Shown here: in pieces, positions 330 to 8,236 of the stretch
How positions within the stretch are numbered: the stretch's first letter is position 1
How the letters are laid out: every line of letters begins with the position of its first letter
Assembly: GCA_023512255.1 (NCBI GenBank)
Contig: JAILZY010000122.1
Span: 1 to 8,944, forward strand
Direction: 5' to 3'
From: a bacterium
GTDB taxonomy: Bacteria; SZUA-182; DTGQ01
DNA length: 8,944 nucleotides
Made by a program: the position numbers and the translations under genes
The notes under the pieces: model-generated
Told to the model about the DNA's origin: nothing
The model's database searches: none
The model's input: the letters and a program-made list of their open reading frames with translations, nothing else

Positions 330-1898
330 ATGAAGAGAGTATTTTCCGCGCTTTGGATACTGTCAGTGGCTCTCTGGTTACTCCTTTTCCCTTCGGCAGC
401 TTTTAGCAGTAAGGCTGACACCGGAGCGGGGAGTGGAGATGAACAGGGAAGAGGTGAGCAGACCCGACTTTACCTGCTTAAACTCAGAGGCGAGGTCGAT
501 CAGGGGCTTACTCCGTTTATCAGCCGTGTAGTTCGGCAGGCTGATGAGCAGGGCATTCGGGCTATTATCATTGAAATCAACACCTTTGGCGGACGGATAG
601 ATGCGGCAGTCGATATTCGGGATGTCCTGCTGAAGGCCAAGACCTTAACCATTGCCTATGTCAATGAGCGGGCTATCTCTGCTGGAGCCTTGATTTGTCT
701 GGCTTGCCGGAAAATTGTTATGGCTCCGGCAGCCACCATAGGAGCAGCCACTCCAGTTATCATCAATCCTTTTAATCAGCGGATGGAGCCAGCCAGCGAA
801 AAGGTAATATCATACTTTCGTAAAGAAATGAAAGCCACCGCGGAAAGAAATCACCGTCCTCCTCGGATCGCCGAAGCTATGGTTGATCCTGAGATAGTCA
901 TTCAAGGACTAAGCGAAAGAGGAAAGCCTCTTACTTTGACCACTTCGGAAGCTCTTCGGCACAAGGTGGCTGATTTTGAAATCTCAGGTGGAGTTGATGA
1001 GATTGTGGAAAAATTTCACCTTTTGGCCAAGGCGGCTGGGGCAGGAGTTATCATAGAAGAGCAAAGGGCAAATTGGGCTGAAAAATTTCTCCGGACTACA
1101 AGCAGTAGTCTAGTGAGTTCCATGCTTCTGACCATCGGCCTGCTGGCCCTGCTTCTTGAGCTGCGGACCCCCACCTTGGGGATTGCTGGAGCGGTGGGGT
1201 TGCTCTGTCTGGCTGTGTTCTTTTGGGGGCATGTGATTCTCAAACTGGTCGGTTGGGAAGAGGTTGTGCTCCTTCTGATCGGAGCGGTTTTACTTCTTCT
1301 AGAGGTCCTGGTCATCCCTGGATTTGGTCTGACCGGCATCCTTGGCCTGCTATTCCTGGCTGCTGGTTTCACCTTGAGTCTGGTTGGCAGGAATCCGACC
1401 GTTTGGGAGATAGCAAAAGCAGGATCGCACATCTTAACCGTAGTGCTTATTGCCTTAGCCGCCTTCGCCCTGTCGGTGAAATTTTTAACTAAGAGCGCGG
1501 CTATCCAGCGCCTGGTACTTCATACCCGCTTCGACGGCCGCAGCAGACGATCGAAAACCGAGCATCTGCCGGCTGAAGGAAAGCAGCCACCGGCTGAGCA
1601 GCCGGGGGCTGAAACAGCAGCGCCTGAAGCGCCTGGGGAGGAGGCACAGTTAAACCTTAGACCAGCAGACCAGATCGATGATCTCGGCCAGGAGGGAGTA
1701 GCCCTGACTAATCTGCGACCTGCGGGCAAGGCAGCGTTTGGGAATAAGAAACTGAATGTAGTCAGCGAGGGGGATTTTATTGACCAGGGGTGTGCGGTTC
1801 GAATTGTTCAGATAGAGGGTAACAGGGTCGTGGTGCGAAAGGTCGATGAAAGGGTTAATGATAAAAACGTTAATAGTAAAGAGGAAAGGCGAGGTTGA
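330..1898 (+). CDS. Long NfeD family membrane serine protease (ClpP-class, NfeD1b type)
   Basis: Membrane protease of the NfeD/stomatin-operon type, 522 residues. It opens with a signal peptide (residues 1-26). A ClpP-like protease domain follows (about 45-235). The motif AISAGA places the nucleophile at Ser117. Lys158 lies 41 residues further on, the same spacing as the Ser97-Lys138 dyad of archaeal PH1510. Five hydrophobic segments run from about 261 to 384, and one contains IPGFGLTG. A charged Pro/Ala/Glu-rich linker (about 400-440) leads to the NfeD OB-fold domain (about 452-505), probably cytoplasmic. The family cleaves hydrophobic stretches of membrane partners such as stomatin, and NfeD partners with flotillins. 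The start follows GAGGGA (317-322) by 7 bases. The last 17 residues are an unusual AT-coded polar tail beyond the OB fold. It is first in a four-gene operon and shares one base with the next gene. The family is secure; the substrate is unknown. Confidence 0.93.
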   Translation: MKRVFSALWILSVALWLLLFPSAAFSSKADTGAGSGDEQGRGEQTRLYLLKLRGEVDQGLTPFISRVVRQADEQGIRAIIIEINTFGGRIDAAVDIRDVLLKAKTLTIAYVNERAISAGALICLACRKIVMAPAATIGAATPVIINPFNQRMEPASEKVISYFRKEMKATAERNHRPPRIAEAMVDPEIVIQGLSERGKPLTLTTSEALRHKVADFEISGGVDEIVEKFHLLAKAAGAGVIIEEQRANWAEKFLRTTSSSLVSSMLLTIGLLALLLELRTPTLGIAGAVGLLCLAVFFWGHVILKLVGWEEVVLLLIGAVLLLLEVLVIPGFGLTGILGLLFLAAGFTLSLVGRNPTVWEIAKAGSHILTVVLIALAAFALSVKFLTKSAAIQRLVLHTRFDGRSRRSKTEHLPAEGKQPPAEQPGAETAAPEAPGEEAQLNLRPADQIDDLGQEGVALTNLRPAGKAAFGNKKLNVVSEGDFIDQGCAVRIVQIEGNRVVVRKVDERVNDKNVNSKEERRG

Positions 1899-2458
1899 TG
1901 AGTTGGTCTATTTTCATTGCCTTGCTCCTGATCCTAGGGCTAGTGCTTTTCCTGATCGAGGTGTTGATTATCCCAGGCTTTGGTATAGCGGGTATTGGAG
2001 CCATTATTTTTCTGACTCTTGGCATCCTTCTGGCCTGGGTAAAATTGACTCTTGCCTGGGCCATTGGAGTAACGCTGCTCAGTGCCGTATCTTTGGTGGC
2101 GATGATCGTTCTGGCGAGGATGTCCGGTCTGATGAGCCGATTTGTGCTGAGTCAGCGGGTTGGTGGTTATAGGACCGGAGCGGCTAGTAGGGGGAGAAGG
2201 CTTTTGTCTGCTTCTGCCAAGAGGCAGGAGGAAGAAGATAATCAGATGGTAGAAGATGGCAAGATCGCGGTAAAGTCAGCGGCTATTTCCGAAGGACAAA
2301 TCGGTCAAGCCATATCCGACCTTAGGCCAGCAGGGATAGCCAAGTTTGGAGATCGCCGACTGCATGTGCTCACTGACGGCACATATATTAAAAAAGGTAC
2401 CAGAGTAAAGATCATTCGCATCGAAGGCAGCCGGATAGTGGTCGAGGAAGAACAATAA
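1898..2458 (+). CDS. Short NfeD family membrane protein
   Basis: 186-residue short-form NfeD with no protease domain. Three membrane segments are visible (about 5-24, 29-47 and 52-74). They are followed by a charged linker (about 96-128) and an NfeD OB-fold domain (about 133-184). It is a paralogue of the C-terminal half of the preceding protein: LIEVLIIPGFGIAG here against LLEVLVIPGFGLTG there, and DLRPAGIAKFGDRRL against NLRPAGKAAFGNKKL. The ATG at 1898 overlaps the upstream stop in TGATG, which suggests translational coupling. A TTG at 1895 would add one residue, but ATG is preferred. In bacteria short NfeD proteins typically accompany flotillin-like genes and are thought to help organise membrane microdomains. 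The direct biochemical role is unsettled. Confidence 0.9.
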   Translation: MSWSIFIALLLILGLVLFLIEVLIIPGFGIAGIGAIIFLTLGILLAWVKLTLAWAIGVTLLSAVSLVAMIVLARMSGLMSRFVLSQRVGGYRTGAASRGRRLLSASAKRQEEEDNQMVEDGKIAVKSAAISEGQIGQAISDLRPAGIAKFGDRRLHVLTDGTYIKKGTRVKIIRIEGSRIVVEEEQ

Positions 2459-2565: not shown

Positions 2566-3582
2566 ATGTCTATCATTCCGTTATTCCCATTTCTAATTTT
2601 GGGTTTTATCATTATTTTTCTTGTTCTCTTTACCTACCTTATTCCGGTCCCGCTCTGGATCGCCGCCTGGTCTTCTGGAGCTTATGTAGGAATCGTCAAC
2701 CTCATCGGCATGAGATTCCGCCGTGTACCGCCCCATGTGGTAGTCAATGCCAGAATCAGCGCGGTCAAGGCCGGGCTCGATATCGCTATCAACGACCTTG
2801 AGGCTTTATATCTGGCCGGGGGACATGTCGAATCTGTGGTCAAGGCTCTCATCTCTGCTGACAAGGCAGGGATCAAGATGGGCTTTGATATCGCCTCAGG
2901 CATTGATCTTGCTGGCCGCAATGTGCTGGAAGCGGTTCAGATGAGTGTTATTCCCAAAGTTATAGAGACTCCGACTGTGGCTGCCGTAGCCAAAGATGGT
3001 ATTCAGGTCCAGGCTAAATCCAGAGTAACGGTCCGGGCCAATATGGAGCGGCTAGTCGGAGGAGCTGGAGAGGAAACCATTATCGCCCGGGTCGGAGAAG
3101 GAATAGTTACCACCATCGGCTCTTCAGCCTCGTACAAAGATGTTTTAGAAAATCCAGACTCCATCTCACGAACCGTTTTGGCCAAGGGGCTTGATTCAGG
3201 GACCGCCTTTGAAATCCTGTCTATTGATATTGCCGATGTGGATGTTGGAGAAAACGTGGGAGCACGCCTGCAGACCATGCAGGCTCAGGCTGATAAGGAA
3301 ATTGCTCAAGCCCAGGCTGAGAGCCGCCGCGCTCTGGCTGTGGCTATGGAGCAGGAGATGAAAGCTAAGGTCCAGGAAATGAAGGCCAAGGTCATCGAGG
3401 CTGAGGCTCAGGTGCCGCTAGCCATAGCCGAAGCCTTACGGAAGGGAAATCTTGGAGTGATGGATTATTATCACCTCAAGAATATCTTGGCTGATACCGA
3501 GATGCGAGAATCTATTTCCCGAATGGGAGGCGAAAAACCACCAGCCGGCGGACCATCCAAAACCGAAAAAGACCAGGGCTAG
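2566..3582 (+). CDS. floA: Flotillin-like membrane scaffold protein FloA (YqfA family)
   Basis: SPFH-superfamily scaffold that oligomerises at the cytoplasmic membrane and organises functional membrane microdomains. Its 338 residues match the usual FloA length of about 330. Two hydrophobic stretches (about 4-27 and 28-48) form the membrane insertion. The SPFH domain follows (about 50-245), with FloA-typical sequence such as [30 protein letters not shown] and [12 protein letters not shown]. The next region (about 246-290) is Ala/Glu/Gln/Lys-rich with EA repeats and should form a coiled coil for oligomerisation. The end (about 292-322) holds the conserved [18 protein letters not shown] segment, then a short Gly/Pro-rich tail. 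GGAGG (2551-2555) lies 10 bases before the ATG. Its place after two NfeD genes is the classic NfeD-flotillin arrangement. Confidence 0.96.
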
Positions 3583-3586
3583 CCTC

Positions 3587-4441
3587 ATGGAAAGAGTTAT
3601 TGAACTTGTCATTATATTTTATCTCATCAGCTCCTTACTCCGGTTTTTGAAAAAGAGCCCCCAAAAGAGGCCCGATCAACCCTCTCCTCCGGCAGATAAT
3701 CGACGATCCTATCCCCCTATCCCGCATCAACAGCAACGGGAGCCGCTTCGGCCTCCATCGACGCCTCCTCCAGCCCCAAGGAGAGAGTCAGGTAGCCCTT
3801 CACCCGACGCCAGGCCAAGGCCAACAACAGCCCCTGCTCCAGCAACTTCTCCCAGTGAGAGAAAAGCTTTGGACGTTCTGGCCGAGTGGGAGCGCAGGGC
3901 CAAAGCCCACCGCGAAGGAGCCGCAGGCGGAGGAGCCGAGAGACCAAGGGTCCACACATCAGAATCAGAAGCCCCGGCCTCAAGGGGCAAGATCTTGACA
4001 GAGCAGTATCGCCGCAAAGAGCCCACCAAAGCCCCACCGGCAAGAGACAAGATCTTTAATTCGACAAAAGAAAGGGTGAAGAAAGAGCCTCCTTTGCCAG
4101 TGCCTGCTCCAGCCACCGGAGCGGGGTCTAAGAGTCCCTCTTCTCCCTCTTCGACTACTTGGCCAGAGAGTGTGATCGAGACTATACCCCAGCACCGAGC
4201 ATCGCTGCCAGATTCGATCACTCTTGCCCGTGGTGAGAGAGCCGCTATGGCAGCACGTGAGGGATTTGGGCCGCAGATATCCGACGAAGTGGCAGATTTT
4301 TTGGAAAAACCTGCCCTCGCTGAAGGGATATTATTTCTGCGACAGCCTGACCTGCTTTGGCAGGGGGTCATTATGTCAGAAATCCTTCGACCTCCCCTGG
4401 CTCGGAGAAATACCTTTCTACCTCCATATTTGAGGGGATAG
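3587..4441 (+). CDS. Uncharacterised proline-rich membrane-anchored protein of the NfeD-floA operon
   Basis: I do not recognise a named family. The 284-residue protein has one N-terminal membrane segment (about 5-20), followed by lysines that suggest a cytoplasmic body. A long low-complexity region rich in Pro, Ser, Arg and Ala (about 24-195) has one likely helix (about 88-112, ERKALDVLAEWERRAKAHRE). The C-terminal 90 residues are more ordered and end in GVIMSEILRPPLARR and PPYLRG. From memory, SEIL-x-PP followed by basic residues near the C terminus recurs in poorly characterised bacterial proteins, often as SEILGPP. The start lies 4 bases after the floA stop, with AGGG (3575-3578) as a modest ribosome binding site, so co-translation is likely. 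A role as partner or adaptor of the FloA/NfeD assembly is inferred from context. A long antisense ORF here is treated as a shadow caused by the proline-rich codons. Confidence 0.82.
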   Translation: MERVIELVIIFYLISSLLRFLKKSPQKRPDQPSPPADNRRSYPPIPHQQQREPLRPPSTPPPAPRRESGSPSPDARPRPTTAPAPATSPSERKALDVLAEWERRAKAHREGAAGGGAERPRVHTSESEAPASRGKILTEQYRRKEPTKAPPARDKIFNSTKERVKKEPPLPVPAPATGAGSKSPSSPSSTTWPESVIETIPQHRASLPDSITLARGERAAMAAREGFGPQISDEVADFLEKPALAEGILFLRQPDLLWQGVIMSEILRPPLARRNTFLPPYLRG

Positions 4442-4604
4442 GCTGAAGGAACAATTAATGGGCGCGGGGCTAAATGGTTCTTTCGCTAAGTGCGTAACAC
4501 AAGTGCGAGCAGATCAATTATGCTATCAATTGGCCGACGCAGCTTGCGCATTTTGTTAGCGAAAGAACCGCTCAATCTCATTGCCCCAATATTTTGAGGG
4601 GATA
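4424..4604 (+). repeat. Direct repeat of the gene end and its downstream echo
   Basis: CCATATTTGAGGGGATA (4424-4440) covers the last codons and most of the stop of the proline-rich gene. CCAATATTTTGAGGGGATA (4586-4604) repeats it with two single-base insertions. The 145 bases between them hold the left and internal arms of the inverted-repeat element. This could be a partial duplication of the gene end or an echo of an insertion event. The copies are not flush with the element ends, so they are not a plain target-site duplication. Confidence 0.6.
4476..4569 (+). other. Extended RNA hairpin downstream of the operon
   Basis: GGTTCTTTCGCTAA (4476-4489) pairs perfectly with TTAGCGAAAGAACC (4556-4569). 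Inside, GTGCGAGC (4503-4510) pairs with GCTTGCGC (4542-4549), allowing two G-U pairs. The apical loop contains ATCAATT twice. The hairpin lies wholly before the terminator, so it would sit in the 3' UTR of a terminated operon transcript. In a read-through transcript the right arm at 4660-4696 could instead capture the left arm. Confidence 0.6.
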
Positions 4605-4620
4605 AGAGCGGGGTTACAGG

Positions 4621-4646
4621 ATCGCCGCGATCGGCGATATTTTTCT
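4621..4646 (+). terminator. Rho-independent terminator of the nfeD-floA operon
   Basis: ATCGCCG (4621-4627), loop CGAT and CGGCGAT (4632-4638) make a perfect 7-bp stem with a tetraloop. ATTTTTCTT follows at once. The T-run is on the plus-strand side only, so it stops transcription from the left operon and not from the aminopeptidase side. It lies about 180 bases after the last stop codon. Confidence 0.8.
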
Positions 4647-4700
4647 TGCTCTATCATTTGCGCATTTGTGTTACACATTTAGCAAAAGAACCATTTGGTG

Positions 4701-4830: not shown

Positions 4831-6252
4831 TCAGCTCTTTTCCAAGAAGACCCGATATGCCTTGAAAGTCTCGTATAGATCAACTGTGCTGGCAATTTCA
4901 AAAGGAGAGTGCATACTCAGGATAGGAGGGCCGCAATCAATCATGTCCAGCCCATATTTAGCCAGAAACTTGGCTATGCTTCCACCGCCTCCCTCATCTA
5001 CCTTGCCCAGTTCCTTGGCCTGCCAGACTACACCGTGCTCGTTGAACAGCCTTCTGATGTCTCCAATATACTCAGCACTGGCATCATTGGTGGCATACTT
5101 TCCCCTCGATCCGATATATTTGCTGAGGTTGACCCCAAAGCCGAGCCGGCAGGCATTTTGTTTTTCAAAAACATCTGGATAGTTCGGGTCAAGTGCGGCA
5201 TTCACATCCGCTGACAAGGCTTTGGAGCGGAAAAGAAGATCACGCACCAGATGCTCCTTTGGCTCTAGCCCTGATTTCTGAAGAAGTTGGCTGACCACCA
5301 GCTCGACAAAGCAGGACTGGGCGCCAGTGTTTCCCTCACTGCCGGTTTCCTCTTTATCCATAAAGAGAACCATCGACGGATATCGGGGCGGCTCTGTCTG
5401 TGCAAATATAGCCCGCAGCGAGGCATAGGCACAGATCCGATCATCCTGCCCATAGCCGCCAACAATACTCTGATCTAAGCCAACCAGCCGGGCTGGCCAG
5501 GCAGGGACTGCTTCTATCTCCGCGCTGATAAAATCCTCCTCGACTATTCCGTACCGCTCATGCAGCAGGGAGAGGATATTCAACTTGATCCGCTCCTTAT
5601 CTTCCGTCTGTCCGGCTATCGGCTCATGGCCAAACAGTATGGTCAGCTTTTCTCCCTCAATCGCTTCTTTCAATTTCTTCTCATCCATAATTCTTCCGGA
5701 CAAATGCGGCAAAAGATCACTGATCGTGAATACAGGATCGTTTGGATTCTCCCCTAGGCAAAATTCAATCTTACTGCCATCGGAGCGGACCACAACTCCA
5801 TGAAGAGCCAGAGGAAGAGCTACCCACTGATACTTTTTTATTCCTCCGTAGTAGTGAGTGCGCAGCAAAGCCAGCTCCTGGTCCTCATAGAGGGGATTCG
5901 GTTTTAGATCGAGCCGAGGAGAGTCAATATGGGAAATAATAATCCGGATCCCCTGGCAAATATCTTCTTTCCCCAGGGAGCACAGAGCGATGCTTTTCCC
6001 ACGATTGAGCTGATAAAATTTCCTGCTCGCCTGAGCAGAGGATGAGGATAGGTCTTGGAATCCTTGCTCCTTGGCCTGCTTTAGGATCTCTCTCACCGCT
6101 TCTCTCTCAGTTTTGGCAGCGTTTAAAAAGTCAATATACTCCTGGGCAAAAGATGCGACCTGCTTGCGTTCCTCCTCGCTCAGAAGCTCCCAAGCCATCT
6201 TTGGCCGTGATTTCAGTTTCTCAAGATCTTTCATATCCGGCAGCTCGCTCAT
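4831..6252 (-). CDS. M18 family zinc aminopeptidase
   Basis: Cytoplasmic metallo-aminopeptidase of the M18 (aspartyl aminopeptidase/aminopeptidase I) family, which removes N-terminal residues from peptides and usually forms a dodecameric tetrahedral particle. The 473-residue length is typical of the bacterial branch. The di-zinc site can be read along the sequence: His108 in SHIDSPRL, the bridging Asp in GQDD (270-271), Glu301-Glu302 in DKEETGS (general base and ligand), Asp349 in ADVNAAL, and His448 in LSMHSP. Conserved GGYGQDDR, GVNLSKY and KVDEGGGGSIA segments support the call. GAGG stands 8 bases before the ATG. It follows the S1 gene on the same strand after 493 bases, with the 30-base repeats in between, so it may be transcribed separately. 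Residue preference (acidic or otherwise) cannot be told from sequence alone, so no symbol is given. Confidence 0.94.
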   Translation of the reverse strand: MSELPDMKDLEKLKSRPKMAWELLSEEERKQVASFAQEYIDFLNAAKTEREAVREILKQAKEQGFQDLSSSSAQASRKFYQLNRGKSIALCSLGKEDICQGIRIIISHIDSPRLDLKPNPLYEDQELALLRTHYYGGIKKYQWVALPLALHGVVVRSDGSKIEFCLGENPNDPVFTISDLLPHLSGRIMDEKKLKEAIEGEKLTILFGHEPIAGQTEDKERIKLNILSLLHERYGIVEEDFISAEIEAVPAWPARLVGLDQSIVGGYGQDDRICAYASLRAIFAQTEPPRYPSMVLFMDKEETGSEGNTGAQSCFVELVVSQLLQKSGLEPKEHLVRDLLFRSKALSADVNAALDPNYPDVFEKQNACRLGFGVNLSKYIGSRGKYATNDASAEYIGDIRRLFNEHGVVWQAKELGKVDEGGGGSIAKFLAKYGLDMIDCGPPILSMHSPFEIASTVDLYETFKAYRVFLEKS

Positions 6253-6745: not shown

Positions 6746-8236
6746 CTATATTTTTTTACCCCATTTTTCCTCAAGCTTTGCCTTAAGGATAACCCCAAGA
6801 GAACCAAGCGGAGGTTCCTCTTTGCCTTTTTTCCCGTTAGGAGGAGCATACTCCTGCACATTCTGCTTTTCTATAATCTCTAGGGCAGCTTTTCGGCTCA
6901 GTCTGATCTTCTCGTTTTCTCGGTCGATACCCAGAACCACAACGCTCATGGGTGTGCCTACCTTAAACATCTGAGCGTGCTTGGCTCCCTTCGTAGTTCC
7001 CATTTCTTCATTAGGGACAAGACCCGTAAGTCCATTAGGTAATTTGACGAAAACCCCGTATGGTTTGACTGATTCCACAGTTCCTTCAAGCAGATCGCCC
7101 TCTTTGAATCCAAGATCTTGACTATGAAAGGGGTTTATCCGCTCAGGTTCCATAGTTAGGGAGATCCTCCGGCCTTGCTCATCCACTTTGAGAACCCGAA
7201 CATCCACCTTCTGCCCAATTTCAACAACTTCTTTGGGATGTTTTACATGCTGCTCGGCATTTAAATTCGAAATATGTACCAGTCCATCCACTCCCGGCTC
7301 GAGTTCAACAAAGGCTCCAAAATCAGTCAGCCGCACTACCGTACCCTGAAGCCATGCGCCTTCCTGATACCGCTGACTAACGGTCAGCCACGGATCAGTC
7401 TGAGTATGCTTTAAAGTAAGAGAGATTCGCTGCTTATCCCAGTCGATTGAGGTTATCTTGGCCTGAACCTGCTGGCCGACTTTTAGCACTTCAGCAGGAT
7501 TTTCAACTCTGCCCCAACTCATTTCAGACACTGGAATCAGCCCATCCAACCCTCCCAGGTCGACAAAAGCGCCAAAATTCTGAATTGAGCGCACCGGACC
7601 GGTAATCTCCTGACCGACCTGCAAGGTCTCCTTGAGATGAGCGATTTTCTTCTCCTGCTCCTGCTCGAGAATATCCCGCCTTGTCAGGATAATATTTCTG
7701 CCTCCCTCTTTATATTCAAGAATGTGAAATGTAAGGTGTTTTCCAATATATTTTGAAAGATTTGCTCCCCGGCGCAACTCGATATGAGAGGCAGGACAAA
7801 AAGCCCTAACTCCTGAAACCTTAACCTCAAGCCCTCCCTTGATCTCACCCACTACGTATCCTTCTACTGGAATATGGCTTCGATAAGCCTCCTCAAGCTG
7901 CTTTTTATTGGCCTTAGCCTGTCCTCCGATCTTAGTTGTCAGGACAATTTCCCCATCCTGCAAGTAAAGAAACTGGGCTTCGATCTCATCACCTTCAGCT
8001 AGTTTGATTTGTCCCTGCTCATCCTCTAGTTCACTTCGGGCGATAACTCCTTCGCTTTTGCCCCCGCCAAGATCAACAAAAACCCACTCTTCAGAAATGC
8101 GGGCGATCTTGCCTTTTATCTTCTGCCCCTGTGAATATTTCTTGGGTTTGGTGTTGCTCTTGTCTAGGAGTTCGGCCAGATTCTCCTCACCCCCTTCGCT
8201 GGGAGTAATTTCTTGAACTTTTTCTGCTTCGCTCAT
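6746..8236 (-). CDS. rpsA: 30S ribosomal protein S1 (five S1 domains)
   Basis: RNA-binding protein of the small ribosomal subunit that helps mRNAs dock and unfold for initiation. Its 496 residues hold five S1/OB-fold repeats: about 37-104, 121-188, 208-276, 293-363 and 380-448. Repeats 3 and 4 carry the strongest signature, QNFGAFVDLGGLDGLIPVSEMSW and TDFGAFVELEPGVDGLVHISNL. The first 35 residues are acidic and low in complexity. A basic tail (about 466-496) ends in KAKLEEKWGKKI. E. coli S1 is about 557 residues with six repeats, so this is one repeat shorter, as in many non-enterobacterial S1 proteins. GGAGG (8254-8250) lies 13 bases before the ATG, unusually far, with GTTTAAAC between them. 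The usual neighbours cmk and ispH are absent here. An S1-like paralogue rather than the main ribosomal S1 cannot be excluded. Confidence 0.9.
   Translation of the reverse strand: MSEAEKVQEITPSEGGEENLAELLDKSNTKPKKYSQGQKIKGKIARISEEWVFVDLGGGKSEGVIARSELEDEQGQIKLAEGDEIEAQFLYLQDGEIVLTTKIGGQAKANKKQLEEAYRSHIPVEGYVVGEIKGGLEVKVSGVRAFCPASHIELRRGANLSKYIGKHLTFHILEYKEGGRNIILTRRDILEQEQEKKIAHLKETLQVGQEITGPVRSIQNFGAFVDLGGLDGLIPVSEMSWGRVENPAEVLKVGQQVQAKITSIDWDKQRISLTLKHTQTDPWLTVSQRYQEGAWLQGTVVRLTDFGAFVELEPGVDGLVHISNLNAEQHVKHPKEVVEIGQKVDVRVLKVDEQGRRISLTMEPERINPFHSQDLGFKEGDLLEGTVESVKPYGVFVKLPNGLTGLVPNEEMGTTKGAKHAQMFKVGTPMSVVVLGIDRENEKIRLSRKAALEIIEKQNVQEYAPPNGKKGKEEPPLGSLGVILKAKLEEKWGKKI

What the first reader, a model, noticed from the sequence alone, without database searches (positions are those of the whole stretch)
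3587..4441. Uncharacterised fourth member of an NfeD-FloA operon
A membrane-anchored protein with a 170-residue disordered proline-rich body and an ordered, SEIL-x-PP-bearing C terminus begins 4 bases after floA. The tight spacing and shared terminator indicate joint expression with two NfeD proteins and the flotillin. One anchor, a flexible tether and a conserved tip is what a recruiting adaptor of membrane microdomains would look like. Function is inferred only from context and architecture.
Basis: partly seen in the sequence, partly recalled or inferred. Interest (0 to 1): 0.65.

Follow-up and report, generated by a model that had tools for sequence, protein, structure and literature searches.

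The report
Overlooked partner protein of bacterial flotillin
The gene after the bacterial flotillin floA encodes a membrane-anchored, mostly unstructured protein whose last 22 or so amino acids are conserved across many bacterial phyla and occur almost only in genomes that have FloA, so it is very probably a missed third component of the FloA-NfeD membrane-organising system; what it does is still inferred.

Summary
ORF4 (3587-4441, 284 aa) starts 4 nt after floA and has one N-terminal transmembrane segment, a proline-rich linker and a C-terminal tip (residues 253-275, QPDLLWQGVIMSEILRPPLARRN). It is not a lineage oddity. A profile of the ~24-residue tip finds the gene after floA in most FloA genomes examined: 43 of 53 in a broad sample, and 124 of 130 hits in a 249-genome single-phylum sample. 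In 290 diverse genomes, hits at E<=1e-3 fall in 32 FloA+ and 0 of 237 FloA- genomes, although 180 of the latter have NfeD. In a third sample, 12 of 25 FloA+ and 0 of 74 FloA- genomes carry it, and 9 of those 12 copies are unlinked to floA. So the tip tracks FloA, not merely operon position or NfeD. Anchor and linker are dispensable: some lineages keep a 50-70 aa soluble tip protein. No Pfam or NCBIfam family covers it. Papers mention only uncharacterised genes at this position (B. subtilis yqfB, a Thermus gene). I infer that the tip docks on the FloA assembly and that anchor plus tether tie it to the membrane. AlphaFold2 gave a tip helix but no evidence of docking. The recruiting-adaptor function is possible and untested.

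The parts
330..1898 (+). NfeD1b: ClpP-class N-terminal domain, membrane domain, C-terminal OB domain
   Evidence: Pfam NfeD1b_N 1.7e-44, NfeD_membrane 4.8e-23, NfeD 1e-13
1895..2458 (+). short NfeD (membrane segment + OB domain), overlaps the NfeD1b stop by 4 nt
   Evidence: Pfam NfeD 3.6e-13
2566..3582 (+). FloA (flotillin-like SPFH protein)
   Evidence: PF12127 520 bits; NCBIfam FloA equivalog 527 bits
3587..4441 (+). ORF4: FloA-partner protein with the conserved tip; the finding
   Evidence: no Pfam or NCBIfam family
3596..3646 (+). ORF4 N-terminal transmembrane anchor, residues 4-20, positive charges on the C-terminal side (predicted N-out, body cytoplasmic)
   Evidence: hydropathy and charge, 41 of 43 members alike
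3647..4342 (+). ORF4 low-complexity, proline-rich linker, residues 21-252; not conserved between lineages
4343..4411 (+). ORF4 conserved tip, residues 253-275 QPDLLWQGVIMSEILRPPLARRN; short helix followed by xPP and basic residues
   Evidence: profile hit 4346-4411, E 1.5e-9 genome-wide; alignment columns; helix in the AlphaFold2 model of a homologue

Best explanation
ORF4 is a dedicated partner of FloA. The transmembrane segment anchors it with its body in the cytoplasm, the disordered linker is a tether, and the C-terminal helix-xPP tip is a docking peptide that binds the FloA assembly, most likely FloA itself rather than NfeD, possibly towards the C-terminal coiled-coil/hat end. The tether would then tie or regulate the FloA-NfeD dome at the membrane. 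Shown: conservation of the tip, its dependence on FloA at genome level, its position next to FloA copies that keep the C-terminal cap, and a predicted helix. Inferred: binding, binding site, and effect on assembly or stability.
For: Tip hits at E<=1e-3: 32 of 53 FloA+ versus 0 of 237 FloA- genomes, Fisher 8e-29; about 10 of the 32 helped train the profile. FloA-/NfeD+: 0 of 180. Bacillota-like sample: 124 of 130 listed hits directly downstream of floA on the same strand. Bacteroidota-like sample: 12 of 25 FloA+ versus 0 of 74 FloA-, 9 of the 12 unlinked. In G152/G289 floA stands alone and the gene lies elsewhere with anchor, Pro-rich linker and tip intact. In five genomes with two FloAs the tip lies by the copy with the C-terminal cap, not the capless one, though in G047 and G193 the two copies are adjacent. 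FloAs with a one-heptad coiled-coil deletion form one clade spanning several phyla; every tip found beside them is a variant lacking the conserved E. Lineages with only a 50-70 aa soluble tip show that the tip is the essential unit. Topology places tip, SPFH domain and NfeD OB domain on the same side (PMC11222466 for NfeD).
Against: No direct interaction evidence. AlphaFold2 gives the tip the same confidence with FloA fused (pLDDT 87/86/75) and alone (83/90/75), so docking is not supported. The coil-deletion/tip-variant match is a single clade, hence one event. 13 of 25 FloA+ genomes of the Bacteroidota-like sample show no tip at E<=0.01, so FloA can do without a recognisable tip. FloA and NfeD occur together in 50 of 53 genomes, so a joint FloA-NfeD surface cannot be separated from FloA alone.
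Confidence: 0.55

Rival explanations
1. Recruiting adaptor: the tip holds the protein on FloA while the disordered proline-rich body binds client proteins and brings them into microdomains.
For: Architecture of anchor, long flexible body and conserved end; FloA-NfeD is reported to hold unfolded membrane clients (PMC11222466).
Against: The linker has no conserved motif, varies from 66 to 234 residues, and is reduced to a soluble stub in some lineages.
Confidence: 0.2
2. NfeD ligand or substrate: the tip binds the NfeD OB domain, or is a substrate or inhibitor of the NfeD1b protease. The Pyrococcus protease PH1510 cuts a hydrophobic C-terminal stretch VIVLMLPM of its stomatin (PMC10153343), loosely like VIMSEILRPP.
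For: NfeD is next to floA in 55 of 58 tip loci that can be judged. The OB domain is the published FloA contact (PMC11222466).
Against: 180 NfeD+/FloA- genomes have no tip. Ten named tip loci have only short NfeD without the protease, some perhaps cut by frame or contig. The protease domain follows a signal peptide, the tip is predicted cytoplasmic. G206 has FloA and a tip-like gene but no recognisable OB domain.
Confidence: 0.12
3. Membrane-binding amphipathic helix: the tip with its basic tail folds back onto lipid, so the protein senses or bridges membrane rather than binding FloA.
For: The tip is a short hydrophobic helix ending in K/R-rich residues.
Against: Near-invariant E and P and small residues four apart (G/A then S/A) look like protein packing, not generic lipid binding; and lipid binding would not make it depend on FloA across genomes.
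Confidence: 0.1
4. Operon hitchhiker or artefact: a neighbour kept by position only, similarity by chance.
For: Members share no alignable sequence outside the tip.
Against: Unlinked copies still occur only in FloA genomes; shuffles and other ORFs of the loci give nothing comparable.
Confidence: 0.02

Closest known systems
Bacillus subtilis YqfB (yqeZ-yqfA/floA-yqfB, sigma-W operon)
   Same: Third gene of the NfeD-FloA operon by published gene order; operon reported to give sublancin resistance (PMC3498285, PMC8144471). Other Bacillaceae in my loci carry the tip at this place (L079, L084, L087, L122).
   Different: Uncharacterised; its own sequence was not retrieved here, so membership by sequence is untested.
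Thermus thermophilus YP_144313, 'gene of unknown function' in the SPFH5 operon (PMC2636767)
   Same: Same position next to FloA (SPFH5) and NfeD; a Thermus-like genome (G027) and Meiothermus (L112) have the tip there.
   Different: Noted in 2009 only as an unknown gene; no family or motif described in the passages searched.
SPFH-NfeD complexes (QmcA-YbbJ, PDB 8z5g; S. aureus FloA-NfeD cryo-EM, PMC11222466)
   Same: Same core system; the predicted FloA homologue matches SPFH domes.
   Different: Two-component descriptions; no tip-type protein reported in what I read, and E. coli QmcA is not FloA.
FtsH-HflK/C assembly (PMC12048511)
   Same: An SPFH dome with an extra membrane-anchored partner.
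   Different: The partner is an AAA protease; ORF4 has no recognisable enzymatic domain.

Membership tests
FloA-partner tip family (defined here) | C-terminal helix-xPP tip matching the profile | tested here: met
   E 1.5e-9 in the whole genome; this sequence is in that training set, but the Bacillota-only HMM also hits it at 20 bits
FloA-partner tip family (defined here) | encoded directly downstream of floA or at least in a FloA genome | tested here: met
   4 nt after floA
FloA-partner tip family (defined here) | N-terminal membrane anchor and unstructured linker (usual, not universal) | tested here: met
   41 of 43 members have the anchor
FloA-partner tip family (defined here) | tip binds FloA | not testable with these tools
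   fused and alone AlphaFold2 confidence equal
NfeD family | NfeD membrane and OB domains | tested here: not met
   no Pfam hit even at E 1 for ORF4
SPFH/flotillin family | Band 7/SPFH domain | tested here: not met
   no Pfam or NCBIfam hit
TatA/TatE (one homologue matched at E 4e-4) | TatA model matched across members | tested here: not met
   only 1 of 43 members, E 4.4e-4; ORF4 none
B. subtilis YqfB | sequence match to YqfB | not tested

The most novel reading that the evidence does not exclude
FloA-NfeD is in most FloA-bearing bacteria a three-component system: an almost unalignable, membrane-tethered protein uses a conserved ~22-residue C-terminal docking helix to bind the FloA dome and control its assembly or attachment. 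It has been missed because only the tip is conserved.
Probability: 0.5. Interest if true: 0.78.

Novelty: new variant of a known kind. Interest (0 to 1): 0.62.

Why it matters
FloA-NfeD is studied as a two-protein scaffold, and what regulates or targets it is open. A widespread third component with a short defined motif gives a directly testable handle: delete it, mutate E or PP, or add the peptide in trans. It may also explain part of what is attributed to floA operon induction, such as sublancin resistance of the B. subtilis yqeZ-floA-yqfB operon.

Tried and rejected
(1) Single-sequence search with the C-terminal 95 residues: finds only family-level relatives; a profile was needed. (2) Second conserved linker helix: suspected by eye, not above shuffles (148 versus 144 sd 4). 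(3) AlphaFold2 docking by reading through the floA stop in loci where floA and the tip gene share a frame: high tip confidence, but the control without FloA gave the same, so no docking evidence. (4) Specificity positions of Bacteroidota FloA (V269, M272 and others) as a tip-binding site: withdrawn, because tip genes in that phylum are often unlinked, so loci without an adjacent tip are not known to be tip-less. (5) FloA+/NfeD- genomes G097 and G238 as evidence against an NfeD target: withdrawn; in G238 an NfeD-like OB tail is visible upstream of floA although Pfam missed it, and G097 is its relative. (6) FtsK-gamma-like domain in the G097/G238 linkers: no Pfam support. (7) Tip hits in FloA- genomes: G103 lies in what looks by eye like a GspE-type ATPase (G242 is its relative), G222 and G526 are 49 and 31 aa frames; the number fits chance. 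(8) Solved structures by sequence: no FloA, NfeD or tip match.

Full report
What is in the window. The window is a whole contig (C141) of a 172-contig assembly with few close relatives. Genes on the + strand: NfeD1b (330-1898), short NfeD (1895-2458), FloA (2566-3582) and ORF4 (3587-4441). ORF4 starts 4 nt after the floA stop. It has a hydrophobic segment at residues 4-20 followed by basic residues, a 17% proline linker, and ends ...LRQPDLLWQGVIMSEILRPPLARRNTFLPPYLRG. It matches nothing in Pfam or NCBIfam, nor do its homologues beyond scattered weak hits.

The same kind of gene follows floA elsewhere. In relatives and in distant genomes the ORF after floA has the same anatomy and a similar end, although the rest cannot be aligned. 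A FloA scan of GTDB genomes gave 80 named loci from Bacillota, Acidobacteriota, Nitrospirota, Myxococcota and other 'Deltaproteobacteria', Deinococcota, Omnitrophota, Latescibacterota, Betaproteobacteria and Bacteroidota (downstream ORFs). A 21-column HMM from 19 Bacillota tips, run on 8532 ORFs, puts the ORF after floA in every one of the top hits; the best hit elsewhere has 7.1 bits. Nine held-out non-Bacillota loci exceed the best of 100 shuffles.

Consensus. In 48 tips: [LI]-x-x-[GA]-[IV]-[IV]-[WMLF]-[SA]-E-[IV]-L-G-x-P-[KR]-[AS]-x-[RK]; E in 46, the second P in all 48, small residues four apart. The motif proline lies a median of 9 residues from the C terminus.

Whole-genome test. The tip profile over 290 diverse genomes and FloA over the same set: 53 genomes have FloA; 43 have a tip match (E<=1) within 2 kb downstream on the same strand; at E<=1e-3, 32 FloA+ and 0 of 237 FloA-. 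About ten of these genomes contributed training sequences. Exceptions were read: G285 is a contig break; G152 and G289 have a solitary floA and the intact gene elsewhere; five of the remaining seven floA loci without a scored tip have a degenerate tip-like ORF in place. NfeD occurs in 230 of the 290 genomes, 180 of them without FloA, none of those with a tip. In 249 genomes of the phylum of G060 (Bacillota-like), 172 have FloA and 134 a tip at E<=0.01; of 130 hits compared by coordinate, 124 are directly downstream of floA, and the only hit I found in a FloA- genome is a 31-aa frame. In 99 genomes of the phylum of G070 (Bacteroidota-like), 12 of 25 FloA+ and 0 of 74 FloA- genomes have the tip, and 9 of these 12 genes are far from floA, some beside a gene that looks like mutY by eye. 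This unlinked co-occurrence argues for a functional bond rather than positional inertia.

What part matters. The linker is not conserved (within the genus; across the family). The anchor is present in 41 of 43 aligned members, but G054, G109 and G150 have only short soluble proteins ending in or near the tip, and several Myxococcota-type loci have a short free tip-like peptide plus a second anchored protein. The tip is the core.

Which partner. FloA is favoured over NfeD by the genome counts. In five genomes with two FloAs the tip lies by the one with the C-terminal cap (GxMDYYxxxNxxADTxMRxSI), not by a capless copy, though in two of the five both copies are adjacent. FloAs with a 7-residue coiled-coil deletion form a clade (support 0.99) over several phyla; the tips found beside them lack the conserved E and often read GPCR. 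These are suggestive only. AlphaFold2 of a read-through FloA-tip fusion, an artificial chain used as a docking trick, gave a confident tip helix, but so did the tip protein alone; no docking claim is made. The FloA part matches SPFH dome proteins: stomatin, HflK/C, prohibitin, flotillin, vault, QmcA-YbbJ.

Mechanism. Most likely the anchored, flexible protein docks its tip on the cytoplasmic FloA assembly and tethers or regulates it. NfeD's cytosolic domain is reported to contact FloA (PMC11222466). The adaptor idea remains open but nothing in the linker is conserved to support it.

Known or new. PMC2636767 mentions a gene of unknown function in the Thermus FloA operon; PMC3498285 and PMC8144471 list yqfB in the sigma-W yqeZ-floA-yqfB operon linked to sublancin resistance. 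I found no description of the tip family in the open-access library searched; subscription literature was not covered. The finding is a new, widespread component of a known system.

Noticed in passing
window 4472-4696: Inverted-repeat element just downstream of ORF4 (36-nt arms, 89% complementary) belonging to a dispersed repeat family with about 40 or more places in this genome (224 candidates, only 40 scored); looks like a MITE or similar.
   Followed up: partly
L045, L051, L085, L065, L055 downstream of floA: Myxococcota-type loci have a short soluble tip-like peptide right after floA, in several followed by a second anchored protein of about 530-540 aa with a tip-like end.
   Followed up: partly
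L049, L050, L057, L058, L060, L063, L104, L113 (FloA residues 265-271, window numbering): FloA clade with a one-heptad deletion in the coiled coil; most associated tips read like MTVLGPCRAL, with a Cys in place of the second Pro and no Glu.
   Followed up: partly
G047, G193, G281, G144, G127: Second FloA copy ending near position 290, without the conserved C-terminal cap; separate from the tip gene in three of the five.
   Followed up: no
L181 2539-3396, L182 2548-3354: Tip proteins with an extra conserved domain in the linker that looks by eye like a winged helix (EFLMDEFDLTEGEAISMLAELQKHRIIGRD); no Pfam hit.
   Followed up: partly
L186, L190, L191, L192: Unlinked tip genes of Bacteroidota-like genomes; in L186, L190 and L191 they follow a ~380-aa gene that looks like mutY by eye, a recurrent alternative neighbourhood.
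   Followed up: no
window 4831-6252 and 6746-8236, - strand: M18 aminopeptidase (PRK02256 equivalog) and a multi-S1-domain ribosomal protein S1-like protein.
   Followed up: no
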